Notes: a model not told the origin generated them from the letters alone. Shown: positions 820-28,277, numbered from the stretch's first letter. The stretch is 28,277 nucleotides of DNA from a virus (IMGVR_UViG_3300020156_000466:1-28277), one strand, 5' to 3'. Numbers and translations: made by a program.

Positions 820-821
820 GG

Positions 822-9803: not shown

Positions 9804-9887
9804 ATCGGCGTCAAAAGCCCCCAAGTTCCACCATTGTTCTTTTCGGAAACCTAGGAAATCCGCCATTTTTTGGGTTCCCAGGATCCC

Positions 9888-9932
9888 TTGACATCGTAGG
9901 GGTCACAGGTTCAATCCCTGTCGCGCCCACCA
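9888..9932 (+). other. Attachment site: 3' part of tRNA-Val(GAC)
   Basis: The segment folds as the 3' part of a tRNA: anticodon loop TTGACAT (9888-9894, anticodon GAC), 3' anticodon strand CGTAG, 5-base variable loop GGGTC, T arm ACAGG/TTCAATC/CCTGT, 3' acceptor strand CGCGCCC, A73 and encoded CCA (9930-9932). The sequence upstream of 9888 does not pair as a tRNA 5' part, so the gene is not complete. Similarity to the E. coli tRNA-Val(GAC) anticodon arm supports the identity. Integration with crossover at the anticodon loop leaves exactly this remnant. Confidence 0.85.
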
Positions 9933-11290: not shown

Positions 11291-11316
11291 TACGTGCCAG
11301 CGATGGAGATACGATC

Positions 11317-11985
11317 GTGGCGAAGGGAACCAAGGACAGGAGAGACCGGCGTGTCGGCCCCGGGCGGCCCTTCACGCCGGGCCAGGACGTGCCGGTCACG
11401 AGGGATCAGGCGCTGCAAACCGCCACGCCGGAGCGTCTGGGCCACTCCGCCCATGTGGTGGAGGCGCGCGACGCCACGGACGGCGGTGCGCCGCCATCCC
11501 TTGGCGTCCGGGTGCTGGACGCGTGCCCGCTGGACGCCTACCGGCGGCGCGGCGTGCTCGATTCGCGTCAGCACGATGCAGGGGCGTGGCTGGCGCGGTG
11601 TTTCCGCAAGGCCGTGCATCAGCCGTCCATGACGACGTGCTATGGCGAGCGCCTGGGCGGCGGCGGCGGCGCCGATCCGATGCTGGATGGCCGGAACACG
11701 CTGTGGCGCGTCCTTCTGGCCAGCGGATTGGCCACGAAGGCGGCCAAGGGAACTGCCGCCGGTGGTGGCGACGCCTTGCGGGACTCCGGCGCCGGCATGG
11801 CGCTCACGCCCACGGGGGTGGTGGCCATCAACGTGTGCGGCATGGAGGAATGGGCCGGCGGCACCCGCAACCTTGCAAAGTTGCGCGCCGCCCTGGACGC
11901 GCTGGCCGATCACCTGCGGATCGGCCAGGGAGCAGGCGCTATCCCACGGAGCCAGGGCCGGGGCGCTGGTGCAGATTGTCGATAA
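11317..11985 (+). CDS. Unknown protein, candidate activator or antiterminator of the tail operon
   Basis: The 222-aa product starts at GTG 11317 with GGAG eight bases upstream. It has a basic N-terminus (KGTKDRRDRRVGPGRPF, with a GRP motif), then a segment HDAGAWLARCFRKAVHQPSM, a Gly-rich stretch, and a helical C-terminal region (GMEEWAGGTRNLAKLRAALDALADHL, about 175-200). The last part faintly resembles the DUF6456 family of alphaproteobacterial proteins; I cannot confirm this. It sits between the repressor and the tail genes, its promoter carries the shared operator motif, and a terminator follows it. By analogy with PrtN in pyocin loci it may switch the tail operon on. This role rests on position only. 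Confidence 0.55.
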   Translation: MAKGTKDRRDRRVGPGRPFTPGQDVPVTRDQALQTATPERLGHSAHVVEARDATDGGAPPSLGVRVLDACPLDAYRRRGVLDSRQHDAGAWLARCFRKAVHQPSMTTCYGERLGGGGGADPMLDGRNTLWRVLLASGLATKAAKGTAAGGGDALRDSGAGMALTPTGVVAINVCGMEEWAGGTRNLAKLRAALDALADHLRIGQGAGAIPRSQGRGAGADCR

Positions 11986-12201: not shown

Positions 12202-12771
12202 ATGCACCCCAGAACCGTCATCCGCCACGCGCTGGTGGCCCACCTGGGCCAGCCGCTGCCGGACACCGACCCGCCGTCCTACCGCACCGCCGCCGGGGAC
12301 AGGGTGTACGCCGCCCGCTCCGCGCCGGTGCCGTCGAACGGCCTGCCATGCCTCGCCGTGCACACCGGCGAGGATGTGCGGGACGCCAGCGCCCCGGCGA
12401 ACGCGGATGGCCCGGAACGGCGCCTGCTCACCATCGTGGTGGAGGGCTCGGCCCCCGGCGCGAACGCGGACGACGCGGCGGACGCCCTGGCGCTGGAGGT
12501 GGAAAGCGCGGTGCGCGCCGACCCCACGCTGGGCGGCCTCGTCGAGGGCATCCGGCTGGAAAGGACGGCGACGGCGGCGACGGGCAGCGGCGATGGCCAG
12601 GCGGTCGTCGCCAAACTGACCTTCGGCGCCGTCTACCACGCGCACCTGCCGGCCGGGGACGGGCCGCCGCCGCCCACGCAGCTCTACGGCTCCTGGGAGC
12701 CGAACACCGGCCCGGCCCACCTGGACGACTACCAGCGGATCGAGCAGGGCCAGCTGCCGGAGGTGCGGTGA
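12202..12771 (+). CDS. Tail terminator-like (gpU-fold) minor tail protein
   Basis: The 189-aa product begins RTVIRHALVAHLG, followed by a strand segment with a conserved-looking RVYAARSAPVPSNGLPCLAVHTGED, RRLLTIVVEGSA, a long helix ADDAADALALEVESAVRADPTLGG, then IRLERT and AVVAKLTFGAVYHA. This alternation matches small tail-completion/terminator proteins of phages (lambda gpU-like fold) that cap the tail tube. The C-terminal 35 residues are an extra Pro/Tyr-rich tail. ATG 12202 has GAGAGGA upstream. The stop overlaps the gpV start by one base (TGATG), so expression is coupled. The terminator assignment is by pattern, not by a diagnostic motif. Confidence 0.55.
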   Translation: MHPRTVIRHALVAHLGQPLPDTDPPSYRTAAGDRVYAARSAPVPSNGLPCLAVHTGEDVRDASAPANADGPERRLLTIVVEGSAPGANADDAADALALEVESAVRADPTLGGLVEGIRLERTATAATGSGDGQAVVAKLTFGAVYHAHLPAGDGPPPPTQLYGSWEPNTGPAHLDDYQRIEQGQLPEVR

Positions 12772-13412
12772 TGACCCCGGAGTTCGTCGACCTGGAGCGC
12801 CGCGTCGCCAACGTGGTGCACTTCGCCACCGTGGAGGCCGCCGACTACGCCAAGGCCCGCGTGCGGGTGCGTATCGGCCCCAACGTCACCGCGTGGCTGC
12901 CCTGGGCCGCCGCGCGGGCCGGCGGCGACCGCTCCTGGCATCCGCCGGAGGTGGGGGAGCAGGTGGTCCTCGCCGCACCCTGCGGGGACCTGAACCAGGC
13001 GGTGGTGCTGGGCTCCGTCTACCAGGCGAAGCACGCCGCACCGGGCGACCGGGCCACCGTCTCCCGCACCGTGTGGGAGGACGGGGCCGTCCTGGAATAC
13101 GACCGCGCGGCGCACGCCTGGACCCTGGACGTGCCGACCGCCGGCACCATTACCCTGCACCTGGGGGCGGCCCGGGTGGTGCTGACGAACGACGGCGTCT
13201 CGCTGGAATGCGGCGGCTCCCGCCTGTCCGTCACGCCGGACGCGATCACGCTGGCCGCCCCCGCGGTGGGCATGTCGGCGGGCGGGGGGAGCGGCACGGC
13301 CACGCTGGCCGGCAACTTCCGCATGCAGGGCCAGCTGGCCGTGACCGGCGACGTGTCGGCCAGCGGCAGCGTCATGGACGGCGGCGGCAACTCCAATCAT
13401 CACAGCCATTAG
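12771..13412 (+). CDS. V: Baseplate spike protein gpV
   Basis: The 213-aa product is close in length to P2 gpV (about 211 aa). The N-terminal half has the OB-fold pattern of the family: VHFATVEAADYAKARVRVRIG, TAWLPWAAARAGGDRSWHPPEVGEQVVLAAPCGDLNQAVVLGSVY. The C-terminal part is a beta-helix spike made of short repeated strands (TITLHLGAARVVLTNDGVSLECGGSRLSV), ending in NSNHHSH, a His cluster like the iron-binding tip of membrane-piercing spikes. It would form the trimeric needle at the tail end. It overlaps the previous gene by one base and is followed 28 bases later by gpW. Confidence 0.9.
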   Translation: MTPEFVDLERRVANVVHFATVEAADYAKARVRVRIGPNVTAWLPWAAARAGGDRSWHPPEVGEQVVLAAPCGDLNQAVVLGSVYQAKHAAPGDRATVSRTVWEDGAVLEYDRAAHAWTLDVPTAGTITLHLGAARVVLTNDGVSLECGGSRLSVTPDAITLAAPAVGMSAGGGSGTATLAGNFRMQGQLAVTGDVSASGSVMDGGGNSNHHSH

Positions 13413-13440
13413 GCCACCACTCACATCAGCGGAGACCCCA

Positions 13441-13779
13441 ATGCTGGGCATGGACGCCGCGACCGGCCGCCCGCTGGGCGGGCTGGCGCACCTGCGCCAA
13501 TCCATCCGGGACATCCTGACCACCCGCACCGGCACGCGCGTCATGCGGCGCGACTACGGCTCGGACCTGCCGAACCTGGTGGACCGGCCGATGAACCCGG
13601 CGCTGGCCGTGGACCTCTACGCCGCCACCGCCAAGGCGCTGCGGCGGTGGGAGGCGCGCCTCCTTCTCACCCGCGTCCGCATCGCCCAGGCCCGGCCGGG
13701 CCGGGTGGAGCTGTCGCTGGAAGGCATTTACCGGCCGGACGGTCAGCGCGTGACCATGGACGGCATCGTTGTGGAGTAG
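13441..13779 (+). CDS. W: Baseplate wedge protein gpW (gp25-like)
   Basis: The 112-aa product matches the gpW/T4 gp25 family in length (P2 W is about 115 aa) and pattern: G-R-x-L-x-G-x-x-H-L-R-Q-S-I-R-D-I-L-T-T-x-x-G-T-R-V-M-R-R-D-Y-G-S-D-L-P-N-L-V-D near the N-terminus, then helix and strands ending RPDGQRVTMDGIVVE. This protein links the baseplate wedge to the sheath. ATG 13441 has GGAGA six bases upstream. It ends 3 bases before gpJ. Confidence 0.92.
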   Translation: MLGMDAATGRPLGGLAHLRQSIRDILTTRTGTRVMRRDYGSDLPNLVDRPMNPALAVDLYAATAKALRRWEARLLLTRVRIAQARPGRVELSLEGIYRPDGQRVTMDGIVVE

Positions 13780-13782
13780 GCA

Positions 13783-14664
13783 ATGCCCGCGATCGACCTT
13801 TCCCAGCTCCCCGCCCCGACGGTGGTGGAGGCGCTGGATTTCGAGACCATCCTGGCGGCCATGCGCGCCGACCTGCAGGCCCGCTGGCCCGAATTCTCCG
13901 CCGCCGTCGAGAGCGACCCGGTGATGAAGGTGCTGGAGGTGGCCGCCTACCGCGAGCTGCTGCTGCGCCAGCGCGTGAACGACGCGGCGCGGGGCGTGCT
14001 GGTGGCGACCGCCGCCGGCGCCGACTTGGACAACCTGGGTGCCCTGCTGAACGTGCGGCGGCTGGTGGTGACGCCGGCCGACCCCGCCGCCAACCCGCCG
14101 CGCGCGGCGGTGCTGGAGGACGACGCCCGGTTCCGCCAGCGCATCGTCCTGGCGCTGGAGGGCTATCCGACGGCCGGCGCCACCGGCGCCTACCGGTTCC
14201 ACGCCCTGTCCGCCACAGCCGACGTGAAGGACGTGGCGGTGCGGAGCCCCTATCCCGGCAAGGTCCGGGTCGTGGTGCTGTCGCGCGCCGTCGGCGGGGC
14301 GGCGGATGCCGCGCTGCTGGCCACCGTGCAGGCGGCCCTGTCGGACGAGACGGTGCGGCCGCTGACCGACAGCGTGGAGGTGGTGTCCGCCGCCATCGCG
14401 CCGTACCGCGTGACCGCCACGCTGCACGTCCAGTCCGGGCCGGACGCGCTGGTGGTGAAGCGGGCGGCGGAGGACGCCGTGGCCGCCTACGTCGCCGGCC
14501 GGCACGCCATCGGGGCGGGGGTGGCGGTGTCCGGCCTGCTGGCCGCCCTGCACCAGCCGGGCTGCCGGACGGTCCGGCTGGCCGAGCCGGCGGCCGACCT
14601 GGAGGTGGGGCCGGACTCCGCCCCCTTCTGCGAGGCCATCACCATCACCGTGGAGGAGGGGTAA
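13783..14664 (+). CDS. J: Baseplate wedge protein gpJ
   Basis: The 293-aa product is nearly as long as P2 gpJ (about 302 aa). It starts with IDLSQLPAPTVVEALDFETI and continues with a long helix (ILAAMRADLQARWPE) and the family signature around VLEVAAYRELLLRQRVNDAARGVLVATAAGADLDNLGALLNVRR (about 47-88). A central domain ARFRQRIVLALEGYPTAGATGAYRFHALSA and a C-terminal strand region follow. It is the gp6-like wedge component that holds the baseplate in hexagon form. Its stop is directly followed by the gpI ATG. Confidence 0.92.
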   Translation: MPAIDLSQLPAPTVVEALDFETILAAMRADLQARWPEFSAAVESDPVMKVLEVAAYRELLLRQRVNDAARGVLVATAAGADLDNLGALLNVRRLVVTPADPAANPPRAAVLEDDARFRQRIVLALEGYPTAGATGAYRFHALSATADVKDVAVRSPYPGKVRVVVLSRAVGGAADAALLATVQAALSDETVRPLTDSVEVVSAAIAPYRVTATLHVQSGPDALVVKRAAEDAVAAYVAGRHAIGAGVAVSGLLAALHQPGCRTVRLAEPAADLEVGPDSAPFCEAITITVEEG

Positions 14665-15819
14665 ATGACCGAATCCCTTCTGCCGTCCAATGCGACGGTG
14701 GCGGAGACGGCCATCGCCGCGACCATCGGGCGGCTGTCCGCCGTCCTGGTGCCCAACCGGGACCTGTGGAACCCGCAGGCCATCCCCGCCCACCTCCTGC
14801 CGTGGCTGGCGTGGTCGCTGTCCATCGGCGAGGAATGGACGCTGGCGACGACGGAGCAGGAGCAGCGCGACATGGTCGCGGCCGCCGTCGACCTGCACCG
14901 CTACAAGGGCACGCCCTTCGCCGTGCGGCGCGGCCTGCGGGCCGCCGGCTTCCGCGACGCCACCCTGCACGAGGGGGAGCCGGTGCTGCGCCACGACGGC
15001 GCGTTCCGGCGCGACGGCACCGAGGATTACAACGTAGGGCGCCGCTGGGCGCTGTTCTCCGTCACCCTGGACCTGGGCAACGACAAGGGGTTCGATGATT
15101 CGGTGGCGGCCCGGGCGCGCACGGCCATCGCGGTGTGGAAGAACGCCCGCTCCCACCTGCACCGGATCGAGCTGAAGGCCACGCTGTCGGAGGCGCGGAA
15201 CGCGCCCCCCGCCGCGGCGCCGGCCCTGCACGTCGGGCTGCATCCGTCCGGCGTCCGCGCGGGCTGGCGCGACGGCACGCACCGCCGCGCGGCGCCCACC
15301 CGGTACGTGCGGGACGGGGCGTTCACCTATGGCGCCGGGGCGCCGCGCGACGGTGCCGTCCGCTGGACCGGGCTGCGCTTCGGCCGGCCGCGCGTGCAGG
15401 CGATGCTGCACGTCGGCCTTCGGCTGGAGGTGCGGCGCGGGGTGGGGGTGTCGCGGGACGGCGCCATCCGCTTCTCCGGCGTCCACCGGCGCGGCGACAC
15501 CGGGGCGCTGGACGTGTGGCCGCCCGTCCGGCGGGTGGCGCTGGACGACGCCCGCGCGGCGTGGCCGGAGATCCCCGGCTTCCTGGTCCACCCGGATCCG
15601 GCGGCCTGGGCCGATGGGCGGCCGCTGGACGGCCCGGTGTACGGCGCCGCCGTGCGCCGCCATCCGCGCGATGCGTCCTTCCGGCGCAACGGTTCCCGCG
15701 CCTTCGGGCCGCTGGAGACGACCTACTACACCCAGCAGGGCAACACCGTCCTTCAGACCGTGTGGGATTACGACACCACGCAATGGGACGGCGACACCAC
15801 CGAGTGGGACGAGGCGTAG
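14665..15819 (+). CDS. I: Tail protein gpI with long C-terminal extension
   Basis: The first 175 residues match the gpI family: LLPSNATVAETAIAATIGRL, then PAHLLPWLAWSLSIGEEW, LHRYKGTPFAVRRGLRAAGF and a helix with ARARTAIAVWKNARSHLHRI. P2 gpI is about 176 aa, but here the product has 384 aa. The extra 200 residues contain several RDGA/RRDG units (DGAFRRDG, YVRDGAFTYG, APRDGAVRW, SRDGAIRF) in a beta-rich, Arg-rich pattern and end in an acidic DYDTTQWDGDTTEWDEA tail. The extension may attach the fibre or decorate the baseplate. The start immediately follows the gpJ stop. Confidence 0.85.
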   Translation: MTESLLPSNATVAETAIAATIGRLSAVLVPNRDLWNPQAIPAHLLPWLAWSLSIGEEWTLATTEQEQRDMVAAAVDLHRYKGTPFAVRRGLRAAGFRDATLHEGEPVLRHDGAFRRDGTEDYNVGRRWALFSVTLDLGNDKGFDDSVAARARTAIAVWKNARSHLHRIELKATLSEARNAPPAAAPALHVGLHPSGVRAGWRDGTHRRAAPTRYVRDGAFTYGAGAPRDGAVRWTGLRFGRPRVQAMLHVGLRLEVRRGVGVSRDGAIRFSGVHRRGDTGALDVWPPVRRVALDDARAAWPEIPGFLVHPDPAAWADGRPLDGPVYGAAVRRHPRDASFRRNGSRAFGPLETTYYTQQGNTVLQTVWDYDTTQWDGDTTEWDEA

Positions 15820-15822
15820 CCC

Positions 15823-18030
15823 ATGACCAGCAACATCGACGTGACGGTGCCGCGTTCCGGGAACGCGGACACCGCCCGGGTGCGCGCGAACTTCGCCACC
15901 ATCAAATCGGAAGTGCAGGATCTGCAGTCCCGCCTCGCCGGCCTGACGGCGCGGCTGGACGCCGGCATGGAGATGCCGGAGGACGCCGTGCGGCTGGCGC
16001 AGCTGGCCCAGGTCGCGCTGTCCGGATCCTACTATCATCTGGCGCACCGCCCGCACATCCCCGCCGGGGCGGAAGATCTGGGGGCGCTGCCGCTGGCCGG
16101 CGGGGCGATGACGGGGCCGCTGGCCCTGTCCCGCAACGCCGGCACGGCCATGGAGCCGGTGCCGCTCCAGCAGCTTCAGGGCATGCTGGCGGCGCTGGCG
16201 GCGGTGGCGCGCACCGGCCGCTATGCCGACCTGCTGGACCGGCCGGCCCTGGGCTCGGCGGCGTCCCGCGACGCAGGCGCGTTCGCCAGCGCCGCGCAGG
16301 GCGCCAGGGCCGACACGGCGGTGCAGCCGCCGGATCTGGCGCCGGTCGCCACGTCGGGGTCCTTCGCCGATCTCGACGGCGCCGTGACGGAGGCGCAGCT
16401 GGCCCCGGCGGTGGCGGCCAAGCTCAACAACACGCTGCCCTACAACGTCTCCGCCACCCGGCCGCCGGGGGCTGCCGACGACGCGAACGCCGGGTGGCTG
16501 GTCGGCTCCCTGTGGGTCGACGTTCAGGCGGACGAGGCCTATCGCTGCGTCGACGCGGCGGCCGGTGCCGCCAAGTGGGTGAAGACCACCGTGGACGCCA
16601 CGGAGTTGGCGGCGCTGGCCTTCTCCGGCCAGTTCGCCGACCTGGGCGGCAGGCCCACGACCTTGGCCGGTTACGGCATCACCGACGCCGCCCCGCTGTC
16701 CCACGCGGGGGCGGGCGGGGCGGCGCACGCGGCGGCCACGGCGTCCGTGGCCGGCTTCCTGTCGGCGGCCGACAAGGCGAAGCTGGACGGCATCGCCGCC
16801 GGGGCGCAGGTCAACACCGTCGCCTCGGTCAACGCCAGGACCGGCGCGGTCGTGCTTGCCCACACGGACGTCGGCGCGGCGCCCGCCGTGCACGCCCACG
16901 GCGAGGCCACGGCGTCGGCCGCCGGTTTCCTGTCGGCGGCGGACAAGACGAAGCTCGACGGCATCGCAACGGGGGCCAACGCCTACGTGCATCCGGCCTC
17001 GGGCGTCGCGGCCGGCACCTACCGGTCGGTGACGGTGGACGGCAACGGCCACGTGATCGGCGGCACCAATCCCACGACGCTGGCGGGATACGGCATCACC
17101 GACGCCGTTCCGTCCAGCCACGCGGGAAGCGGCGGCGGGGCCCATGCGGTGGCGACGCAGAGCGCGGCGGGGTTCCTGTCGGCTACCGACAAGGCGAAGC
17201 TGGACGGCATGACGCCGGCCACGGCGGCCACGGCGGGCACCCTGGCCCAGCGCGACGCCAACAACACCCTGGCGTCCGGCTCCTTCATCGCCAGCGCGGC
17301 GTTCCCGGTCTTCGAATTCCACGAGACCGACGGCACCGCCAACAACAGGCGCTGGCAGCAGCTCGTCAACGGGCAGCAGATGATCTGGCGCACGCTGACG
17401 GACGACGGCTCGGCCGAAACGCCCTGGCTGACCGTCAGCCGCAGCGGCGTCGGCGTCGGCTCCATCGCCTTCGGCGGCTCGCTGACGGTGGGGGTGCAGG
17501 ACGGCCTGATCCTGTCCCGCTCCGCCGGCAACTACCGCCTGCTGAACTGGCGCAGCGGCACGTCCAACCGCTGGCACCTGGGGGCCGACAGCGGGACGGA
17601 GGGCGGCTCCAACGCCGGCTCGGCCTTCGTGCTGATGCGCTACAGCGACGCCGGGGCCTACCTGGGCACGGCGATCAACGTGTCGAGGGCCAGCGGGCTG
17701 GTGTCGTTCGAGACGACCCCGGCCGTGGCCGGCAACTACGTCTGGCACGCCGGCAACCTGGGCAACGCCACGACGGCCACCGCCGGGCTGATGTCGGCCG
17801 CCGACAAGGCCAAGCTCAACGGTCTGGGCAGCGTCGCCTCCGGCGTTCTGCCGCCGGTGAACCAGGCCCCCGCGGCGGGGGCGCTGGGCACCACGAAGAC
17901 GCCGACGCTCCAGGGCTCCGCCTTCGCCACGGTGGGCAGCGCCGACACCCACGCCGCGTCGCAATGGCAGATCGCCACCGACGCGGCCTTCACCACCATC
18001 GTCTACGACAGCGGCGAGGTAACCACGTGA
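15823..18030 (+). CDS. Tail fibre protein with SAADKAKLDGI repeats and truncated FN3 end
   Basis: The 735-aa product is a collagen-like/beta-rich fibre. Residues 1-55 form a short helix region (ARVRANFATIKSEVQDLQSRLAGL) that probably anchors it. Repeated motifs GYGITDA and FLSAADKAKLDGIA mark the shaft (copies at nucleotides about 16753, 16924, 17170 and a diverged one at 17785). Residues 480-600 look like a receptor or trimerization region. The C-terminus holds only the first half of a fibronectin-III-type module (nucleotides about 17857-18020) and stops at YDSGEVTT. The GTG of the next gene overlaps its stop. It should be part of host recognition; no separate chaperone follows directly. Confidence 0.8.
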   Translation: MTSNIDVTVPRSGNADTARVRANFATIKSEVQDLQSRLAGLTARLDAGMEMPEDAVRLAQLAQVALSGSYYHLAHRPHIPAGAEDLGALPLAGGAMTGPLALSRNAGTAMEPVPLQQLQGMLAALAAVARTGRYADLLDRPALGSAASRDAGAFASAAQGARADTAVQPPDLAPVATSGSFADLDGAVTEAQLAPAVAAKLNNTLPYNVSATRPPGAADDANAGWLVGSLWVDVQADEAYRCVDAAAGAAKWVKTTVDATELAALAFSGQFADLGGRPTTLAGYGITDAAPLSHAGAGGAAHAAATASVAGFLSAADKAKLDGIAAGAQVNTVASVNARTGAVVLAHTDVGAAPAVHAHGEATASAAGFLSAADKTKLDGIATGANAYVHPASGVAAGTYRSVTVDGNGHVIGGTNPTTLAGYGITDAVPSSHAGSGGGAHAVATQSAAGFLSATDKAKLDGMTPATAATAGTLAQRDANNTLASGSFIASAAFPVFEFHETDGTANNRRWQQLVNGQQMIWRTLTDDGSAETPWLTVSRSGVGVGSIAFGGSLTVGVQDGLILSRSAGNYRLLNWRSGTSNRWHLGADSGTEGGSNAGSAFVLMRYSDAGAYLGTAINVSRASGLVSFETTPAVAGNYVWHAGNLGNATTATAGLMSAADKAKLNGLGSVASGVLPPVNQAPAAGALGTTKTPTLQGSAFATVGSADTHAASQWQIATDAAFTTIVYDSGEVTT

Positions 18031-18377
18031 TCACCAAAGGCTATTACGCGTCCCTGCGGGAGCTGCTCGCCACCGGCGACCCCGCCCGCGTCGTCGCCAA
18101 GATCGGCTTCGGCACCGGGACGAACCCCGAAGACTTCAACGACACCACCCTGACCAACGCCTTCGTCAAACCCCTGTCGGGGTTCGAGATGGACCCCGAC
18201 AACCCGCGCCTGCTGCGCTTCACCTATTCCCTGCTGCGCGGCGAGGCGAACGGCAAGGCCATCACCGAGATCGGCCTCTTCACCGAGGGCGGCACGCTGG
18301 TGGCCCGCAAGGTCCGCAGCCCCATCGAAAAGACCCCGGACATGCAGATCGGGGACACCTGGGAACTTCTCGTTTAA
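18027..18377 (+). CDS. Short tail-collar/fibre adaptor-like protein
   Basis: The 116-aa product starts at GTG 18027, with GAGGT six bases upstream and four bases overlapping the fibre stop. It contains FGTGTNPEDFNDTTLTNAFVK, SLLRGEANGKAITEIGLFTEGGTLVARKVRSP and DTWELLV. This resembles the N-terminal domain of phage tail fibres (tail-collar fibre domain, DUF3751 type), in which the ITEIGLF motif is typical. Here it is a stand-alone gene between two fibres, and may join the second fibre to the baseplate. The family call is by memory of the motif. Confidence 0.6.
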   Translation: MITKGYYASLRELLATGDPARVVAKIGFGTGTNPEDFNDTTLTNAFVKPLSGFEMDPDNPRLLRFTYSLLRGEANGKAITEIGLFTEGGTLVARKVRSPIEKTPDMQIGDTWELLV

Positions 18378-18389
18378 GGAGCGCGCCAC

Positions 18390-20978: not shown

Positions 20979-20990
20979 GGAGGCACTGCA

Positions 20991-21524
20991 ATGTGGTCAC
21001 GCATTGACGACGAAAACCGTTGCGCCGAGTTCGTGATGGACGATCCGGAGGGGCGTTTCCACCCCTCCATCACGTGGGTTCCGGTTCCGGACGCCCTGCG
21101 CGGCTGGGCCGACCACAGCTACGTGGCCGGTGAAGACGGCAGCCTCGCCCCCCCGACCCTCGACCACCTCAGGCAGCAGGCCAAGTCCCGCATCGCCGCC
21201 CGCCGCTACGCGGCGGAGACCGGCGGGCTCACCCTGCCGGACGGCACCGGGCTGCGCACCGACCGCGAGAGCCAAGCCATGATCGGCAACGCCGTGGCGC
21301 TGGCGCAGCTGGAGCCGGACGCCCCGGTGGCGTTCAAGGCGGCCAGCGGGTGGGTGACGCTCACCGGCGCGCAGATGCAGGCCGTCGGCCGGGCGGTGGG
21401 CGCGCATGTCCGCGCGTGCTTCGCCCGCGAACAGGCCATCGGCGAGCTGATCGACCTGGCCGACACGGTCGACGAGGTCCTCGCCACGTACGACGCCGAA
21501 AAGGACGAGGGCTGGCCGGCGTAA
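20991..21524 (+). CDS. DUF4376-type tail fibre-associated protein
   Basis: The 177-aa product has a variable N-terminus (MWSRIDDENRCAEFVMDDPEG, FHPSITWVPVP) and a C-terminal helix region typical of DUF4376 proteins: DHLRQQAKSRIAARRYAAET, TDRESQAMIGNAVALAQ, then FKAASGWVTLTGAQMQAVGRAVGAHVRACFAREQAI. This domain is common in genes next to phage fibres and may act as fibre assembly factor or fibre-tip partner. ATG 20991 has AAGGAGG upstream, 12 bases after the fibre. A strong terminator follows at 21553. Confidence 0.75.
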   Translation: MWSRIDDENRCAEFVMDDPEGRFHPSITWVPVPDALRGWADHSYVAGEDGSLAPPTLDHLRQQAKSRIAARRYAAETGGLTLPDGTGLRTDRESQAMIGNAVALAQLEPDAPVAFKAASGWVTLTGAQMQAVGRAVGAHVRACFAREQAIGELIDLADTVDEVLATYDAEKDEGWPA

Positions 21525-21552
21525 GCGGCCGCAGCGATCCGTCCGACGTTCG

Positions 21553-21575
21553 GCCCGCCTTCGGCGGGCTTTTTC
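21553..21575 (+). terminator. Intrinsic terminator between fibre and sheath genes
   Basis: Stem GCCCGCC/GGCGGGC (21553-21559 and 21563-21569) with loop TTC followed by TTTTTCTTTT. It lies 30 bases before the sheath start, so the sheath needs its own promoter, read-through or antitermination. Confidence 0.85.
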
Positions 21576-21605
21576 TTTTCCCGAAAGCCTTGGGAGCACA
21601 CCGGA

Positions 21606-23015
21606 ATGCCGGAACAGTTTCTCCACGGCGTGGAAGTCGTCGAAATCGACAACGGCCCGCGCCCCATCCGTACCGTGAAGTCCTCCATCATCGGCGTCGT
21701 CGGCACGGCACCCGAAGCGGACGCCGCGGCCTTCCCGCTGGACACGCCCGTGCTGGTCGCCGGCAGCCGCCAGGAGGCGGCCAAGCTGGACACCACCGGC
21801 GACGGCAAGGGCACCCTGCCGGCCGCGCTGGAGGGCATCTTCGACCAGATCGGCGCCATGGTCGTCGTCGTCCGCGTGGCCGAGGGGTCCGACGCCGACG
21901 AGACCATGGCCAACCTGCTGGGCGGCGTGAACGGCACCACCGGCGCCTATGAAGGCGTGCACGCACTCCTGTCGGCGCGCACGGCGCTGGGCGTCGTGCC
22001 GCGCATCCTGTGCGCGCCGGGCTTCACCCACCAGCGCACCACCGGCGGCGTCACCGGCGTGGCCGTGGGGGCCGGCGGCAGCGGCTATGCGGCCACCGGC
22101 ACCACCGTCACCATCACCGGCGACGGCGTGGGGGCGGAGGCCAAGGCCGTGATCACGGCCGGCGCCGTCACCGGCGTCACCGTCACCAAGCCGGGCTTCG
22201 GCTACACCAGCGCCACCGTCACCATCTCCGGCTCCGGCACCGGCGCCACGGCCACCGCCAGCCTGGGCACGGTCGCCAACCCGGTGGTGGCGGAGCTGCT
22301 GGGCATCGCCGAGCGCACCCGCGCGGTGATCATCGCCGACGGCCCGAACGCGACGGACGCGGCCGCCATCGCCTACCGCGGCGACTGGGGCTCGCCGCGC
22401 GTGTTCGTGGTCGATCCCTGGGCCAAGGTGGTGCGCGGCGGTGCCGTGGTGGACGAGCCGCTGTCGGCCCGCGTGGCCGGGCTGATCGCCAAGATGGACA
22501 ACGACCGCGGCTTCTGGTGGAGCCCGTCGAACCAGGTGATCAACGGCATCGTCGGCACCGTCCGCGCCGTGGACTTCACGCTGGGCGACGCCAACTGCCG
22601 GGCGAACTACCTGAACGAGCGCGAGGTGGCGACGGTCATCCGCGAGGACGGCTTCCGCCTGTGGGGCAACCGCACCTGCGCGGCCGATCCGAAGTGGGCG
22701 TTCCTGTCGGTCCGCCGCACCGCCGACCTGATCAACGACAGCCTGCAGCGCGCCCACCTGTGGGCGGTCGACCGCAACATCACCGGCACGTACCTGCAGG
22801 ACGTGACGGAGGGCGTGAACGCGTACCTGCGCAGCCTGAAGGCGCAGGGCGCCATCCTGGGCGGCCGCTGCTGGCCGGACCCGGACCTGAACAGCCCGGC
22901 CAACATCACGCAGGGGAAGGTCTTCTTCAACTTCGACTTCACCCCGCCGTACCCGGCCGAACACATCACCTTCCGTTCGCAGCTCGTGAACGACTACATC
23001 GCGGAGATCCTGTAA
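21606..23015 (+). CDS. FI: Contractile tail sheath protein gpFI with inserted repeat domain
   Basis: The 469-aa product has the sheath N-terminal pattern (FLHGVEVVEIDNGPRPIRTVKSSIIGVVGTAP), the middle DTPVLVAG and VVVRVAEG segments, and the conserved C-terminal part with VDPWAKV, RGFWWSPSNQVINGIVG, NGR-like WGNRTCA and FRSQLVNDYIAEIL. P2 FI has about 396 aa; here about 78 extra residues (146-223) form two related GYxx(T/A)TVTI-G-G-GA-A repeats. The insert would face outward on the tail. ATG 21606 is 31 bases after the terminator. The gene ends next to the tube gene (stop, then ATG directly). Confidence 0.93.
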   Translation: MPEQFLHGVEVVEIDNGPRPIRTVKSSIIGVVGTAPEADAAAFPLDTPVLVAGSRQEAAKLDTTGDGKGTLPAALEGIFDQIGAMVVVVRVAEGSDADETMANLLGGVNGTTGAYEGVHALLSARTALGVVPRILCAPGFTHQRTTGGVTGVAVGAGGSGYAATGTTVTITGDGVGAEAKAVITAGAVTGVTVTKPGFGYTSATVTISGSGTGATATASLGTVANPVVAELLGIAERTRAVIIADGPNATDAAAIAYRGDWGSPRVFVVDPWAKVVRGGAVVDEPLSARVAGLIAKMDNDRGFWWSPSNQVINGIVGTVRAVDFTLGDANCRANYLNEREVATVIREDGFRLWGNRTCAADPKWAFLSVRRTADLINDSLQRAHLWAVDRNITGTYLQDVTEGVNAYLRSLKAQGAILGGRCWPDPDLNSPANITQGKVFFNFDFTPPYPAEHITFRSQLVNDYIAEIL

Positions 23016-23555
23016 ATGGCCATCCAGCTTCCCAGGGTTCTGAAGAACCTCAACCTGTTCCTGGACGGCACCGGCTACGCCGGCCGCGTGGACGAGGTGA
23101 CGCTGCCCAAGCTGACCATCAAGACCGAGGAGCACCGCGCCGGCGGCATGGACGTGCCGGTGGCGCTCGACATGGGCATGGAGAAACTGGAGATCGCCAT
23201 GGTGCTCTCCGATTTCGAGCCCGAGGTGTTCGCCTCCTTCGGCCTGCTGGACAGCGAGGGCAAGGCCATCACCGTGCGCGGCGCGTTCCAGGCACAGGGC
23301 AGCGCCGACGTGCTGGCCGTCGCCATCTCCATGCGCGGCGGCTGGAAGGAGCTGGACGCCGGCAAGTGGAAGGCGGGCGACAAGTCCACCCTGACCATCA
23401 CCGGCGCGCTCTCCTACTACAAGCTGGAGGCCGGCGGCGAGGAGCTGGTGGAGATCGACGCCGTCAACATGGTCCGCCGGATCGCCGGCGCCGACCAGCT
23501 GGCGGCGGTGCGCGACGCCATCGGCCTGAACAGCGGCTTCTTCAGCTTTCCCTGA
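23016..23555 (+). CDS. FII: Tail tube protein gpFII
   Basis: The 179-aa product has P2 FII length (about 172 aa) and pattern: LPRVLKNLNLFLDGTGYAGRVDEVTLPKLTIKTEEHRAGGMDVPVALDMGMEKLE at the N-terminus, then GLLDSEGKAITVRGAFQAQG, and a C-terminal ITGALSYYKLEAGGEELVEIDAVNMVRRIAG. It forms the stacked hexameric tube inside the sheath. It starts immediately after the sheath stop. A GC-rich hairpin (23591-23631) lies between it and gpE. Confidence 0.93.
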   Translation: MAIQLPRVLKNLNLFLDGTGYAGRVDEVTLPKLTIKTEEHRAGGMDVPVALDMGMEKLEIAMVLSDFEPEVFASFGLLDSEGKAITVRGAFQAQGSADVLAVAISMRGGWKELDAGKWKAGDKSTLTITGALSYYKLEAGGEELVEIDAVNMVRRIAGADQLAAVRDAIGLNSGFFSFP

Positions 23556-23590
23556 GCCTGACCGCCTCTCCTGACCACGCCTCGTGACCA

Positions 23591-23631
23591 CGGCACGGGC
23601 CGGCGCGGATGTCCGCGGCCGGCCCGTGCCG
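23591..23631 (+). terminator. Hairpin after the tube gene, possible partial terminator
   Basis: A perfect 14-bp stem (23591-23604 with 23618-23631), extended by inner pairing GCGG/CCGC, followed by TTTCC. The U-run is short, so partial termination or mRNA 3' stabilization is likelier than full termination. It could lower downstream expression relative to the abundant sheath and tube. Confidence 0.6.
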
Positions 23632-23666
23632 TTTCCAAAAAGCCTCCCCGAAAAGGATACCGGGAC

Positions 23667-23951
23667 ATGACCGACACGCAGTTCACGGCGGCCGGCGGGC
23701 CGCGCACCGTCACCCTTTCCGTTCCCGTCACCGTGGGCGGGCGGACCATCGCCGACGTCACGCTGCGCCGCCCCAAGGTCGGCGACCTGCGGCGCATGGA
23801 CAAGCAGAAGGGCTCCGACCTCGACAAGACGCTGTGGATGATCTCCACCCTGGCCGAACTCACGCCCCAGGAGGTGGACGAGATCGACGCCGGTGACCTG
23901 GAGGCCATCGCGGAGGTGGTCGCGGGTTTTACCGGGAAGGGGCGGGATTAG
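23667..23951 (+). CDS. E: Tail assembly chaperone gpE
   Basis: The 94-aa product is close to P2 gpE (about 91 aa), with VTLRRPKVGDLRRMDKQKGSDL and a helix LAELTPQEVDEIDAGDLEAIAEVVAGF. It helps fold or load the tape measure protein. Its last codons contain a slippery site at 23924-23930 giving a longer E/E' form. ATG 23667 has AAAAGGA upstream. Confidence 0.85.
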   Translation: MTDTQFTAAGGPRTVTLSVPVTVGGRTIADVTLRRPKVGDLRRMDKQKGSDLDKTLWMISTLAELTPQEVDEIDAGDLEAIAEVVAGFTGKGRD

Positions 23952-24103
23952 CCCCGGATTCGGCGTGGGCGGCGATGGCCGACATCGCCGTGGTGTTCGG
24001 CTGGACGCCGGACGTGATGGACGACATGGAGGCCCCGGACCTCCTGCGCTGGCACGCGCTGGCGCGGGAACGCGGGGCCGGGGCCGGAGGCAGCCGTGGC
24101 TGA
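23667..24103 (+). CDS. E': E/E' tail assembly chaperone made by -1 frameshift
   Basis: A -1 shift on G GGT TTT (23924-23930) continues into an open frame: YREGAGLAPDSAWAAMADIAVVFGWTPDVMDDMEAPDLLRWHALARERG, ending at TGA 24101-24103. The predicted fusion has 145 aa, close to the 142 aa of P2 E+E'. The extension contains the family pattern ADIA-x-VFGW...L-L-x-W-x-x-x-A. An ATG at 23975 lies in the same frame. It overlaps the tape measure start (GTG 24096) by 8 bases. E and E/E' proteins together guide tail assembly. Confidence 0.8.
23924..23930 (+). promoter_or_regulatory. Programmed -1 frameshift slippery heptamer
   Basis: The sequence GGGTTTT is in frame as G GGT TTT, a perfect X XXY YYZ heptamer. 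The downstream -1 frame is open to 24103 and encodes the expected E' domain. A GC-rich stretch that may form a stimulatory structure follows. Confidence 0.8.
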
Positions 24104-26207
24104 AGGGAAGATCACCATAACCATCGCGGCCGTGGACCGCCTGACGGCCCCGGTGCGGATGATGAACGAGGCGGCGGCCCTGCTCGCCGGTCCGTTCGTC
24201 CGCCTGAACGGCGTCGTTCAGGCTTTGGGCGACGGGGCCGTCGCCGCCGTGAAGCGGATTCCCGCCCTGCCGAAGGCCATGATGCGCATGGGCGGTCCGC
24301 GCGATCTCGGCCTGGATGACCTGGACACCCGGTTCAAGACGCTCCGCGGCAGCGTCACCGACGTGACGGGCAGGGTGTCCGCCCTGTCCGGCTCCATGCT
24401 GGACATGGCCGGCCTGGGCGGGCTCAGCCTGCGCGACGTGGCCGTCAGCCTCGGCCGCGGCGTCGTGGAGGCGTCGGCCCAGGCCGAGCAGTACGAGGCC
24501 GTGCTCACCTCGCTTCTCGGCAGCAACGCCGGGGCGAAGGAGAGCATGGCGTGGATCGATACGTTCGCCGAGAAGACCCCGTTCAGCGTCGACGCGGTCA
24601 CCGACGCCTTCATCCGCCTGAAGGCGCAGGGCATCGACCCGACGGACGGCACGCTGCAGGCGGTCGGCGACGCCGCCGCCGCGACGGGCAAGCCGCTGGC
24701 GCAGATGGTGGACGCCATGGCCGGGGCCGCCGGCGGCAAGTTCGACCGTCTGCGCGACGTGGTCGGCGGCCGTGCCGAAACCAAGGACGGCAAGGTCACC
24801 TACACGGTCGCCGACAAGGACGGCAGGCAGCGGGTCTTCACGGCGGCCGAGAACGACGCCCAGGCCCTGCAGGCCATGGTCATGCAGGTGTTCCAGGCGA
24901 AGGGCTACACCGGCGCCATGGACAATCTGTCCCGCACCTGGAACGCCATGTGGCTGAAGCTGCAGGACGCCGGGTCCGGGTTCCTGCAAATGATCGGCGA
25001 CGCCGGCACCTTCGAATACCTGAAGGGCAAGCTGCGCGCCGTCCTGGACCTGATCAACCAGTGGAAGGCGGACGGCACGCTCCAGGCCTGGGCCAGGCGG
25101 ATCTCCGACGCCTTCACCGGCGCCATGCAGGCCATCGAGGGCAAGCTGGCCGGCGTGAACTGGGCGCAGGTGTTCACCACCGTGACCGACACGGTGTCCC
25201 GCTTCGTGGACACCGTGAGGAGCGTGGTCGCGTGGCTGGGCGGCTGGGAGAACGCCGTCATCCTCGTCGCGTTCGTGATGAACGCGGGGCTGCTGGCGTC
25301 CGTGCTGCAGCTCGGCATGGCGCTGGGCGGCCTCGCCGCCGGCTTCGTGCGCGTCGGCGCGTCGCTGGCGATGATGGCCGTCGGCAACGTGGTGGCCGGC
25401 ATCGGCGCGGTGATCGGTGGTGTCATAGCGGCGGTGAAGGCGATCGACACCTTCATCTTCGCCCTTCGGATGAGCGGCAGCGTGTTTGCGTCCCTCAGTC
25501 TGGTGATGGCGACGAACCCTTTGGGCGTGATCGTGCTGGGCGTGGCGGCCCTGGCCGGCATGGCTTACGTCCTGTGGGAAAACTGGGAGGCGGTGGGGCC
25601 TTATTTCAGCGCCTTGTGGCAAGGCATCAGCGACATCGTGCTGAAGCTGACCGGCCTGAACCTGTCCGCAATCGGGACCAATCTCATCAACAGCCTGTGG
25701 GCTGCCTTGAAGGCGATGACCGACTGGTTGCCGGATTGGGCCAAGGACAAGCTGGGAATCACCTTTCCCGATGCTCCGCCGCCCGCTCCGCCGGCTCCGC
25801 CACCGGTGGCCGAGAAGCCCTCCGCGGTGAGTCAGGTGGCGACGCCGCCGGTGCCTCCACCGGTCAAGCCGCCGCCGCCGGTTCTTCCGGCCTCTGCCGG
25901 GGCCCTGGCGGCGGGTCGGGCAATGATCTACGGCCCCATGCCGATGCCGGGCATCGTCCAGGCGGCCAACCCGGCCCAAGCCGCCGGCATCCCGGCGGCG
26001 GTTCCGGGCATGCCGCCGCTCGGCGCCATGGCCACCCCGCCGGTCAGCCAGATCAGTGCCCCCGTCACCGTCGCCGTCACGGTGAACGGCATGGCGGACA
26101 TCGACGTGCTCCGCCGCGAGGTGGAGGGCGCCACCCGCCGCGCCATGGAGGAATGGCAGTGGCGCCAGCAATCGGCGGCCGGCGCCGCCCTGTGGGGAGG
26201 AGTGTGA
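24096..26207 (+). CDS. T: Tail tape measure protein gpT
   Basis: The 703-aa product is the longest structural tail protein. The N-terminus (ITITIAAVDRLTAPVRMMNEAAALLAGP) and the central block ASAQAEQYEAVLTSLLGSNAGAKESMAWIDTFAEKTPFSVDAVTDAFIRLKAQG are typical tape measure patterns. Hydrophobic segments occur at about 385-455 and 460-490, and a Pro-rich stretch (PPPAPPAPPPVAEKP) near 560-600. Using the known rule of about 0.15 nm per residue, the tail would be about 105 nm long, shorter than P2 (815 aa). The start is GTG 24096, inside the end of E'. Confidence 0.9.
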   Translation: MAEGKITITIAAVDRLTAPVRMMNEAAALLAGPFVRLNGVVQALGDGAVAAVKRIPALPKAMMRMGGPRDLGLDDLDTRFKTLRGSVTDVTGRVSALSGSMLDMAGLGGLSLRDVAVSLGRGVVEASAQAEQYEAVLTSLLGSNAGAKESMAWIDTFAEKTPFSVDAVTDAFIRLKAQGIDPTDGTLQAVGDAAAATGKPLAQMVDAMAGAAGGKFDRLRDVVGGRAETKDGKVTYTVADKDGRQRVFTAAENDAQALQAMVMQVFQAKGYTGAMDNLSRTWNAMWLKLQDAGSGFLQMIGDAGTFEYLKGKLRAVLDLINQWKADGTLQAWARRISDAFTGAMQAIEGKLAGVNWAQVFTTVTDTVSRFVDTVRSVVAWLGGWENAVILVAFVMNAGLLASVLQLGMALGGLAAGFVRVGASLAMMAVGNVVAGIGAVIGGVIAAVKAIDTFIFALRMSGSVFASLSLVMATNPLGVIVLGVAALAGMAYVLWENWEAVGPYFSALWQGISDIVLKLTGLNLSAIGTNLINSLWAALKAMTDWLPDWAKDKLGITFPDAPPPAPPAPPPVAEKPSAVSQVATPPVPPPVKPPPPVLPASAGALAAGRAMIYGPMPMPGIVQAANPAQAAGIPAAVPGMPPLGAMATPPVSQISAPVTVAVTVNGMADIDVLRREVEGATRRAMEEWQWRQQSAAGAALWGGV

Positions 26208-26210
26208 ACC

Positions 26211-26621
26211 ATGGCCGAACGCATCATGCTGGCATTGGGCGATTTCCGCTTCGAGGTGGGGACGGCGGCCTACCAGAGCCTGCAGCGCTCGCAGGCCTTC
26301 CGGTGGGAGAAGCAGAACCGGCTCGGCCGGCTGCCGGCGCTCCAGTTCACCGGCCCTGACGCCGAGACGGTGGAGCTGAAGGGCACCATCTACCCGGCCT
26401 TCCGGGGCGGGCTGGAGCAGGTTCCGGCCATGCGCGACCTCGCCAGCCTGGGCGTGCCGCTCGACCTCGTCGACGGCACCGGGCGGGTGCTGGGCCTCTG
26501 GTGCATCGAATCGGTCGCCGAGACCGGCACGGTGTTCACCGACGACGGCCAGCCCCGGAAGCTGGAGTTCACCCTGAAGCTGACCGCCTACGGCGAGGAT
26601 GAGCAGGAGGACGGCGCATGA
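26211..26621 (+). CDS. U: Tail protein gpU
   Basis: The 136-aa product matches P2 gpU (about 159 aa): LALGDFRFEVGTAAYQSLQRSQAFRWEKQNRLGRLPALQFTGPDAETVELKGTIYP, then GLEQVPAMRDLASLGVPLDLVDGTGRVLGLWCIESV. This small protein belongs to the tail-end/baseplate group between T and D. The stop overlaps the gpX start by four bases (ATGA). Confidence 0.9.
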   Translation: MAERIMLALGDFRFEVGTAAYQSLQRSQAFRWEKQNRLGRLPALQFTGPDAETVELKGTIYPAFRGGLEQVPAMRDLASLGVPLDLVDGTGRVLGLWCIESVAETGTVFTDDGQPRKLEFTLKLTAYGEDEQEDGA

Positions 26622-26827
26622 CCGCGCTCTACGTCACGAGGAACGGGGACATGGTGGATTACGTGGCCTGGAAGCACTACGGCAGCCGCACCGGCGCCGT
26701 GGAGGCCGTGCTGGACGCCAACCCGGGGCTGGCCGACGCGGGCGTCGTCCTCCCCGCCGGCCGCACCGTCACGCTGCCGGACCTGCCCGCCGGGACGACG
26801 CAGCGCGTCGTCCGGATCTGGGGGTGA
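26618..26827 (+). CDS. X: Tail protein gpX (LysM-like)
   Basis: A 69-aa protein like P2 gpX (67 aa): YVTRNGDMVDYVAWKHYG, then VEAVLDANPGLADAGVVLPAGRTVTLPDLP, a LysM-type pattern. It sits in the baseplate hub region and may contact the cell wall or gpD. ATGA overlap with gpU and 2-base spacing to gpD show tight coupling. Confidence 0.9.
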   Translation: MTALYVTRNGDMVDYVAWKHYGSRTGAVEAVLDANPGLADAGVVLPAGRTVTLPDLPAGTTQRVVRIWG

Positions 26828-26829
26828 CC

Positions 26830-27888
26830 ATGCGCCCTGCCTTCAAACTGCTGGCGGACGGCCGGGACATCACGGCCAACATCCGCGACCGCCTGCTGTC
26901 CATCGCCTGCCACGACGAGGCGGAGGCCAAGTCCGACCGCCTCACCATCCAGCTCGACGACCGGCCGCGCCCGGCGGACGGCGCGCATGTGGCGCTGCCC
27001 GACGTGGGATGCCGGCTGGAGCTGTCGCTGGGCTACGAGGAGACCGGCATGCTGCCCATGGGCAGCTTCCTGGTGGACGAGGTCGAGCACAGCGGCCCGC
27101 CCGAGACGCTGAAGGTTGGCGCCAAGGCCGCCGATATGGTGGGCCCCTTCCGCACGCCCACCTCGCGGTCCTGGGACGCCACCACGCTGGGCGCCATCGT
27201 GCAGGAGGTTGCGAGGGCGCACGGCTACCAGGCCCGGCTGGACCCGGCGCTGGCCGCGGTGCCGGTGGCGCACGAGGACCAGACCAACGAAAGCCCCATG
27301 GCCTTCCTCCACCGCCTGGCCGAGCGGCACGACGCGGTGGTCAAGCCGGTCAACGGCATGCTGGTGCTGGCGCCGAAGGGCAAGGCCAAGGCCGTCAGCG
27401 GCAAGGCGCTGCCCGAAGCCGTCGTACGGATGGACCGGCTGTCCAAGTGGACCTACAGCTACAAGGCACGCGCCGAAGCCGGCAAGGCCAAGGACGCCAG
27501 GGGACCGGCCGGCGGCGTCCAGACGGCCTACTGGGACAAGGACGCCGCCGCGCAGAAGCAGGCGCAGGCTGGGGCGCCGCCCCACCAGAACACCCGCTTC
27601 GCGTGCGCCGACGCCAAGGCGGCGGCGGCGGACGCCGCCGGCACCAAGAACCGGAAGGACCGGGGATCGGCCAAGTTCAGCTGCACCACCATCGGCGACC
27701 CGCGGTTCATGGCCGAGCAGAAGCTGAGGCTGCAAGGCTTCCGCCCCGGCCTGCCGACGGAGTGGCGCGTCACCACCGTGGAGCACCGGTTCGACGCGAA
27801 CGGCTACGCCGTGGACATCACCGCCGAGCTGTTCACGCCGGAGCAGGAGGACGTGGGCAAGGCCGCTTCCACGGCGGGACAGGAATAG
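26830..27888 (+). CDS. D: Baseplate hub protein gpD
   Basis: The 352-aa product matches P2 gpD (about 387 aa) and the gp27-like hub: FKLLADGRDITANIRDRLLSIACHDEAEAKSDRLTIQLDDRP at the N-terminus, GCRLELSLGYEETGMLPMGSFLVDEVEHSGPPETLKVGAKAADM, then TNESPMAFLHRLAERHDAVVKPVNGMLVLAPKG. It forms the ring that joins tube and gpV spike. A Lys/Ala-rich insert (about 220-280) is poorly conserved. The stop is followed by 41 bases before the holin gene. Confidence 0.93.
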   Translation: MRPAFKLLADGRDITANIRDRLLSIACHDEAEAKSDRLTIQLDDRPRPADGAHVALPDVGCRLELSLGYEETGMLPMGSFLVDEVEHSGPPETLKVGAKAADMVGPFRTPTSRSWDATTLGAIVQEVARAHGYQARLDPALAAVPVAHEDQTNESPMAFLHRLAERHDAVVKPVNGMLVLAPKGKAKAVSGKALPEAVVRMDRLSKWTYSYKARAEAGKAKDARGPAGGVQTAYWDKDAAAQKQAQAGAPPHQNTRFACADAKAAAADAAGTKNRKDRGSAKFSCTTIGDPRFMAEQKLRLQGFRPGLPTEWRVTTVEHRFDANGYAVDITAELFTPEQEDVGKAASTAGQE

Positions 27889-27929
27889 TCGCGTCCCGCC
27901 TTTTCCAAACCCGCGCTGATAGGGCCGCC

Positions 27930-28277
27930 ATGGACAAGCACACCGCGTTCTACGAACTTGCGGTCAATGGGGCCGTCGCGTCGTTCGGCGCGATGGCGAA
28001 CTATCTCTACGCGCACGTGACCAGGAACGTGCCGCTCAACTGGCTGCGCTTCCTCACCAACATCGCGCTTGGCTTCTTCATCGGGCAGGTGGTGGGCGAT
28101 TTCCTGCCGGCGGACTTCGCCTATCGGGACGGCACCCTGCTGATCGCGGGGTTCAGCGTCTACCCGCTCCTGCAGATCCTGGAGATCAAGGGCGGCGAGT
28201 TCGTCGCCCGGCACCTGGGCGTCGGCCCGGCTTCCAAGCACGGCCCTGGACGGCGGGGAAACGGCCTCGGCCCATAG
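27930..28277 (+). CDS. Holin-like membrane protein
   Basis: The 115-aa product has three likely membrane segments: about 8-30 (YELAVNGAVASFGAMANYLYAHV), 42-60 (LTNIALGFFIGQVVGDFLP) and 68-88 (GTLLIAGFSVYPLLQILEI), and a basic Gly-rich tail (KHGPGRRGNG). Size and layout fit class I phage holins (LydA/P2-like). It would open the inner membrane to release tail particles, with an endolysin expected nearby, likely just beyond the right edge. ATG 27930 has a weak AGGG upstream. The gene ends at the last base of the window. Confidence 0.65.
   Translation: MDKHTAFYELAVNGAVASFGAMANYLYAHVTRNVPLNWLRFLTNIALGFFIGQVVGDFLPADFAYRDGTLLIAGFSVYPLLQILEIKGGEFVARHLGVGPASKHGPGRRGNGLGP

What the first reader, a model, noticed from the sequence alone, without database searches (positions are those of the whole stretch)
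12202..28277. Headless P2-type tail locus: probable R-type tailocin
All tail genes from terminator-like protein to gpD and a holin are present in P2 order and appear intact, while no head, packaging or integration gene is seen. The intact state of every tail gene argues for selection for tail function, as in pyocins.
Basis: partly seen in the sequence, partly recalled or inferred. Interest (0 to 1): 0.6.

Follow-up and report, generated by a model that had tools for sequence, protein, structure and literature searches.

The report
Headless contractile phage-tail locus in Azospirillum
A stretch of bacterial DNA, probably from the root-associated genus Azospirillum, carries every gene for a contractile phage tail but no phage head; close relatives share this headless state, so it most likely makes a tail-shaped weapon against rival bacteria, a known kind of device not yet described for this group in the papers I could search.

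Summary
From 12202 to 28277 lies an intact contractile-tail operon: terminator, V, W, J, I, two fibre genes plus chaperone-like DUF4376, sheath, tube, E with a conserved -1 frameshift (E'), tape measure, U, X, D and a holin-like gene. There is no terminase, portal or capsid gene. Related full phages carry the head module immediately left of the tail terminator. Probes that find it in four relatives find nothing here.

The window ends at 28277 only because the IMG/VR record was trimmed there. In a 93%-identical twin the next gene is a 55-aa gene. In A. agricola and A. doebereinerae that gene closes a ~20-kb headless locus before hisI-metC.

It belongs to a different element, ending at a tRNA-Val attachment copy (9888-9932), so the tail locus lies outside it.

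Headless loci form one clade on sheath and gpD trees, nested among full phages. dN/dS is below 1 throughout, including between headless relatives. Fibre tip and tube-tape-measure-U differ sharply between the window and its twin.

Verdict: probable R-type tailocin, of a kind already known. I found no report of a contractile tailocin in Alphaproteobacteria. Regulation, lysis and killing are untested.

The parts
9888..9932 (+). 45-nt copy of the 3' end of a tRNA-Val(GAC) gene (attR of the element to its left), followed by a terminator-like inverted repeat 9934-9967; marks the left limit of the segment that carries the tail locus
   Evidence: 45 bases identical to the 3' end of tRNA-Val in two Azospirillaceae genomes; inverted repeat with 14-nt arms
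10174..10788 (+). XRE/HTH_3 repressor-like regulator (204 aa), candidate tailocin regulator
   Evidence: Pfam HTH_3 4.9e-11; 98% identical and in the same place in twin contig L201; absent from the A. agricola and A. doebereinerae loci
11317..11985 (+). 222-aa protein of unknown function at the place where related phages carry the head module; shared by the window, its twin and three other headless records, absent from the A. doebereinerae locus and from four full phages tested
   Evidence: PHROG 31762 (unknown function) 8e-8
12202..12771 (+). tail terminator
   Evidence: PHROG 20428 1e-24
12771..13412 (+). baseplate assembly/spike protein V
   Evidence: Pfam Phage_base_V 4e-18
13441..13779 (+). 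baseplate wedge W (gp25-like)
   Evidence: Pfam GPW_gp25 2.7e-16
13783..14664 (+). baseplate J
   Evidence: Pfam Baseplate_J 8.9e-27
14665..15819 (+). baseplate/tail protein I
   Evidence: Pfam Tail_P2_I 1.2e-30
15823..18030 (+). tail fibre 1 (735 aa, repetitive)
   Evidence: PHROG 7389 tail fibre 4e-20
18027..18377 (+). collar-fibre-like small protein
   Evidence: PHROG 1780 tail collar fibre 1.5e-5
18390..20978 (+). tail fibre 2 (862 aa); C-terminal tip from about 20000 differs sharply from the twin
   Evidence: PHROG 863 tail 5e-14; sliding identity
20991..21524 (+). DUF4376 fibre-associated protein, probable fibre chaperone
   Evidence: Pfam DUF4376 3.4e-22
21606..23015 (+). contractile tail sheath
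   Evidence: Pfam Phage_sheath_1 and Phage_sheath_1C
23016..23555 (+). tail tube
   Evidence: Pfam Phage_tube 1.1e-56
23667..23951 (+). tail assembly chaperone E
   Evidence: Pfam Phage_TAC_7 1.2e-18
23924..23930 (+). slippery heptamer G GGT TTT for a -1 frameshift into an open E' frame that ends just inside the start of the tape-measure gene; heptamer conserved in four headless relatives
24096..26207 (+). tape measure protein (703 aa)
   Evidence: Pfam TMP_3 1.3e-11
26211..26621 (+). tail protein U
   Evidence: Pfam Phage_P2_GpU 5.6e-40
26618..26827 (+). tail protein X
   Evidence: Pfam Phage_tail_X 9.5e-22
26830..27888 (+). baseplate hub D
   Evidence: Pfam Phage_GPD 2e-13, PHROG 52 3.7e-104, both scored on the longer frame 26599-27888
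27930..28277 (+). holin-like membrane protein (115 aa); last gene of the record
   Evidence: weak PHROG 6384 holin E 0.09; 79% identical to the gene directly before an endolysin in A. doebereinerae

Best explanation
This is a chromosomal R-type (contractile) tailocin locus of an Azospirillum-like bacterium. It derives from a temperate phage with a P2-type tail and a lambda-type head (the Pseudomonas phage PPpW-3 / Azospirillum cavernae prophage kind). The head module was lost at the head/tail boundary: the head genes and their connectors are gone, the tail terminator and everything downstream is kept. On induction the cell would build a contractile tail (703-aa tape measure) capped by the terminator, lyse, and release particles whose fibre tips bind related bacteria; sheath contraction would then drive the tube through the envelope and depolarise the target. 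Shown here: the gene set, its intactness, the conserved frameshift site, absence of head genes, shared headlessness of a clade, purifying selection, and exchange of the fibre tip. Inferred from known tailocins: induction, particle assembly, lysis and killing.
For: Complete tail gene set. Head probes negative here but positive in four related full phages. Homologous loci in A. agricola and A. doebereinerae are ~20 kb, headless, share the same right flank (hisI-metC and further genes), and their GpA terminases lie on other contigs. The twin contig continues past 28277 with the same terminal 55-aa gene. Headless loci form one clade on sheath (96/89) and gpD (98/91), beside the A. cavernae full prophage and among full phages. 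dN/dS is below 1 for all tail genes, in comparisons between headless loci. The slippery heptamer and E' frame are conserved. The fibre-2 tip plus DUF4376 differs between twins (about 61-71% identity against 94-100% over most of the fibre upstream), as tailocin specificity modules do. The integrase is separated from the tail locus by a tRNA-Val attR.
Against: No direct evidence of particles or killing. The window's own right flank beyond 28277 is unseen and is inferred from relatives. The holin call is weak, and no endolysin is in the window or at the same place in the twin, although relatives carry a Phage_lysozyme gene. No PrtN-like activator was recognised, and no GTTC-N7-GTTC SOS-type box lies upstream of the operon. 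The W tree does not recover the headless clade, and J, I and fibre 2 of the window are closer to the A. cavernae phage than to A. agricola, so the loci are mosaic.
Confidence: 0.77

Rival explanations
1. A decaying remnant of a defective prophage that lost its head and makes nothing useful.
For: Lysis cassette incomplete in the window; no recognisable activator or SOS box; the locus is present in only a few Azospirillum species: five of 45 genomes have a closely related sheath, two of them headless.
Against: No tail gene is broken; dN/dS is below 1 between headless relatives; the frameshift site is kept; the headless state is shared across at least two named species and a metagenome twin.
Confidence: 0.13
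2. Part of a complete prophage whose head module lies beyond the trimmed right end.
For: The record is trimmed at 28277; full prophages with an 80-84% identical sheath exist (A. cavernae).
Against: In the related full phages the head module sits left of the terminator. The window's left side has no head genes. The twin and two named species show the locus ending one or two genes later.
Confidence: 0.05
3. The tail locus serves a head encoded elsewhere in the genome (split phage, satellite or gene-transfer-agent-like use).
For: The host genomes of the relatives carry terminase genes on other contigs.
Against: No head-closure or neck homologue, which would be needed to join such a head, was found by the probes used. 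I did not examine whether those other terminases belong to prophages with their own tails.
Confidence: 0.03
4. An eCIS of the Afp/PVC type that delivers a cargo protein to eukaryotic cells.
For: Contractile injection machinery next to unknown genes. Related headless loci have extra sequence of about 1.1-1.7 kb between V and W that the window lacks.
Against: The structural genes match P2-type phage tails, with a single sheath gene and P2 D/U/X/E proteins; no AAA+ ATPase family was met in the scans.
Confidence: 0.02

Closest known systems
R-type pyocins of Pseudomonas aeruginosa and carotovoricin of Pectobacterium (P2-like R-type tailocins)
   Same: P2-type contractile tail gene set without head genes; fibre and tape-measure genes are the variable parts (tape-measure variation in carotovoricin: PMC13195805)
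   Different: Nearest full phages have lambda-type heads; no PrtR/PrtN pair recognised; no endolysin in the window; Azospirillum rather than Gammaproteobacteria
Rhizoviticin of Allorhizobium vitis (PMC10811719)
   Same: Alphaproteobacterial tailocin derived from a prophage that lost its head
   Different: F-type (non-contractile); the present locus has a contractile sheath and a P2-type baseplate
Azospirillum cavernae prophage (G003 C2, ~314-336 kb) and Pseudomonas phage PPpW-3
   Same: Homologous tail operon in the same order (sheath 80-84% identical to A. cavernae over the aligned parts)
   Different: They carry terminase, portal, protease/capsid and connector genes directly left of the tail terminator

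Membership tests
R-type tailocin | Contractile sheath plus tube of phage-tail type | tested here: met
   Pfam sheath and tube matches
R-type tailocin | Complete baseplate, hub, tape measure, chaperone and fibres | tested here: met
   V, W, J, I, D, X, U, E/E', tape measure, fibres
R-type tailocin | No capsid, portal or terminase genes in the locus | tested here: met
   None in 28277 bases; right flank beyond the record inferred from the twin and two species
R-type tailocin | No integration or replication genes belonging to the locus | tested here: met
   Integrase 8422-9747 lies in another element ending at tRNA-Val attR 9888-9932; no homologue of it in the A. agricola or A. doebereinerae loci
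R-type tailocin | Lysis cassette in the cluster (usual, not universal) | tested here: inconclusive
   Weak holin match only; Phage_lysozyme present in relatives, not in the window
R-type tailocin | Locus regulator of PrtR/PrtN kind or SOS control | tested here: inconclusive
   XRE regulator upstream; no activator family and no SOS box at the operon
R-type tailocin | Maintained by selection in the headless state | tested here: met
   dN/dS below 1 between headless loci; conserved frameshift site; clade of headless loci
R-type tailocin | Produces headless particles that kill related strains | not testable with these tools
   Needs induction, electron microscopy and killing assays
P2-like temperate phage (functional prophage) | Head and packaging genes | tested here: not met
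   Absent
F-type tailocin (rhizoviticin) | Non-contractile tail, no sheath | tested here: not met
   Sheath gene present

The most novel reading that the evidence does not exclude
A single head-loss event in Azospirillum-type bacteria founded a lineage of contractile tailocins, the first of that type described in Alphaproteobacteria. It has since spread or persisted across several species while exchanging two cassettes, the fibre tip with its chaperone and the tube-E-tape measure-U block.
Probability: 0.55. Interest if true: 0.5.

Novelty: new member of a known kind. Interest (0 to 1): 0.42.

Why it matters
Azospirillum is a widely used crop inoculant. A narrow-spectrum contractile weapon would help explain competition between inoculant strains, and would extend R-type tailocins to a class where the literature I could search reports only the F-type rhizoviticin. 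It also gives a clean natural comparison: a full prophage in A. cavernae and headless tail loci in A. agricola and A. doebereinerae within one genus, so the step from phage to weapon can be tested directly.

Tried and rejected
11317-11985 looked to me like DUF6456 from memory, but Pfam and NCBIfam at relaxed E-values gave no hit, so this was dropped. AlphaFold models of 11317-11985 and of the XRE protein were low confidence (mean pLDDT 38.7 and 50.4), so no fold search was made. I suspected that the XRE C-terminal half is an S24-like domain, but only its HTH matched anything, so it is left open. The idea that the integrase at 8422-9747 belongs to the tail locus was rejected: a 45-nt tRNA-Val 3' copy and a terminator-like hairpin separate them, and the copy lacks the 5' part of the tRNA, so the element lies to its left. 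GTTC-N7-GTTC boxes occur at 9754 and 9825 (inside the neighbouring element) and at 26206, none before the tail operon. gpD and integrase scans of viral contigs gave few or no loci. The W-gene tree (112 aa) did not resolve the headless clade. Labels used in the sheath tree have limits: L004 is a 7.7-kb contig counted as headless without proof, and the two twin contigs L201 and L002 are joined only by coming from one metagenome at similar identity. In the gpD and W trees every row outside the headless set was labelled full, although the gene content of some (for example L007, L010, L116) was not checked.

Full report
What the window is. The window is a complete IMG/VR virus record of 28277 bases. 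Both ends fall on gene ends (1 = end of ORF 1-819 on the minus strand; 28277 = stop codon of ORF 27930-28277), so the record was most likely cut from a longer contig at gene boundaries. Its GC content is 62-76%.

The observation. Gene calling with a codon model and family scans give one continuous operon: tail terminator, V, W, J, I, fibre 1, collar-fibre-like protein, fibre 2, DUF4376, sheath, tube, E, tape measure, U, X, D, holin-like. None is broken. The E gene ends with a canonical slippery heptamer, G GGT TTT at 23924-23930. In the -1 frame an E' reading frame stays open to the first codons of the tape-measure gene. The same heptamer, a constant gap of about 145 nt and a similar E' peptide occur in four headless relatives. 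This is the P2 E/E' arrangement, and its preservation argues that the tail is still made.

No head. No ORF scanned matches a head, portal or terminase family, apart from weak terminase-small-subunit profile hits to the HTH_17 domains of two regulators in the left-hand element. To control for sensitivity I used terminase, portal, capsid, head-closure, neck, terminator and V proteins of PPpW-3 and Alux-21, together with the corresponding proteins available from ZRG1 and the A. cavernae prophage, as probes. They find terminase, portal, capsid and V in A. cavernae (G003), G004, G016 and G035, but only terminator and/or V in the window, its twin and the A. agricola/A. doebereinerae-type loci. In the full phages the head module and connectors sit directly left of the terminator. 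In the window that place holds 11317-11985, a gene of unknown function. It is shared with the twin and three other headless records, and not found in the A. doebereinerae locus or the four full phages.

The right flank. The twin contigs from metagenome 3300020147 are 92-96% identical over most of the locus. One starts exactly at the XRE start codon. The other continues past the holin-like gene with a 55-aa gene. In A. agricola (G001) and A. doebereinerae (G002) a homologous 55-aa gene closes the locus. An 80-aa gene then follows, which in five tail-less Azospirillum genomes also sits next to hisI, then hisI and metC. The tail locus is therefore ~20 kb and headless on both sides in two named species, and no GpA terminase lies on those contigs. 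For the window itself this is an inference from relatives.

The left flank and the integrase. There is one at 8422-9747 (PHROG 1, E 9e-30). It is followed at 9888-9932 by 45 bases identical to the 3' end of tRNA-Val(GAC) and a terminator-like hairpin at 9934-9967. Related integrases in two Azospirillaceae genomes sit beside an intact tRNA-Val with the same sequence. Because the window copy lacks the tRNA's 5' part, it is the far end (attR) of an element lying to its left. The XRE gene and tail operon lie outside it, in what was chromosome downstream of the tRNA gene. So the tail locus has no integrase of its own in view.

Evolution. On a sheath tree of 51 proteins the headless loci form one clade (96/89) with the A. 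cavernae full prophage as sister (100/91) among full phages. On gpD the headless clade has 98/91 support. The short W tree does not recover it, and J, I and fibre 2 of the window are closer to the A. cavernae phage than to A. agricola, so parts of the operon have recombined. Between the window and its twin dN/dS is 0 to 0.73, with most genes below 0.5; against A. doebereinerae it is 0.24-0.73. Since the compared loci are all headless, much of this purifying selection acted on tails without heads. The window and twin differ in two sharp blocks. One is the fibre-2 tip from about 20000 through DUF4376 (61-71% identity). The other is tube, E, tape measure and U (dS 0.22-0.48). The rest has dS 0.01-0.10. 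Swapped fibre tips are typical of tailocins; variable tape-measure genes are also reported for carotovoricin (PMC13195805).

What it does. The best-supported reading is an R-type tailocin: a contractile tail assembled without a head, released by lysis, that binds a related bacterium with its fibre tips and punctures it. Gene content, headlessness and selection are shown; assembly, release and killing are inferred from known tailocins. Weak points are the weak holin match, no endolysin in the window (relatives carry a Phage_lysozyme gene), and unknown control. The XRE regulator is present in window and twin only, and no SOS-type box precedes the operon.

Novelty. The rhizoviticin paper (PMC10811719, 2024) states that no tailocin had been reported before in Alphaproteobacteria and describes an F-type one. 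My searches of the held library for R-type tailocins in Alphaproteobacteria and for Azospirillum tailocins found no other report. The library omits most subscription journals, so this is not proof of priority. The kind of system is well known; the lineage and host group appear new.

Noticed in passing
window 1-9932: A separate integrative element at least 9.9 kb long: tyrosine integrase, excisionase-like HTH_17 proteins, RuvC-like resolvase, a sigma-factor-like gene (1-819, PHROG 351 1e-16) and a 648-aa protein (1739-3685) with no match in Pfam, PHROGs, PADLOC or the phage collection; integrated at tRNA-Val.
   Followed up: partly
window 23016-26621 against L002: Tube, E, tape measure and U together are strongly diverged from the twin while sheath, X and D are nearly identical, suggesting exchange of a tube/tape-measure cassette independent of the fibres.
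   Followed up: partly
G001, G002, IMG/VR 2622736628 and 2928819513 loci, between V and W: A gap of about 1.1-1.7 kb between V and W, holding a poorly called ORF in one record and no called gene in the others, absent from the window; possible tailocin cargo or immunity gene in the relatives.
   Followed up: no
G002 (A. doebereinerae) left flank of the tail locus: By my reading of the sequences, PAAR-like, FHA-domain and serine/threonine-kinase-like genes of type VI secretion kind lie close to the left of the headless tail locus.
   Followed up: no
window 10788-11317: 529-bp spacer between the XRE gene and 11317-11985, 88% identical in the twin (lower than the genes), with AT-rich promoter-like stretches shortly before 11317 and a possible small reverse-strand ORF at 10775-11026.
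   Followed up: no
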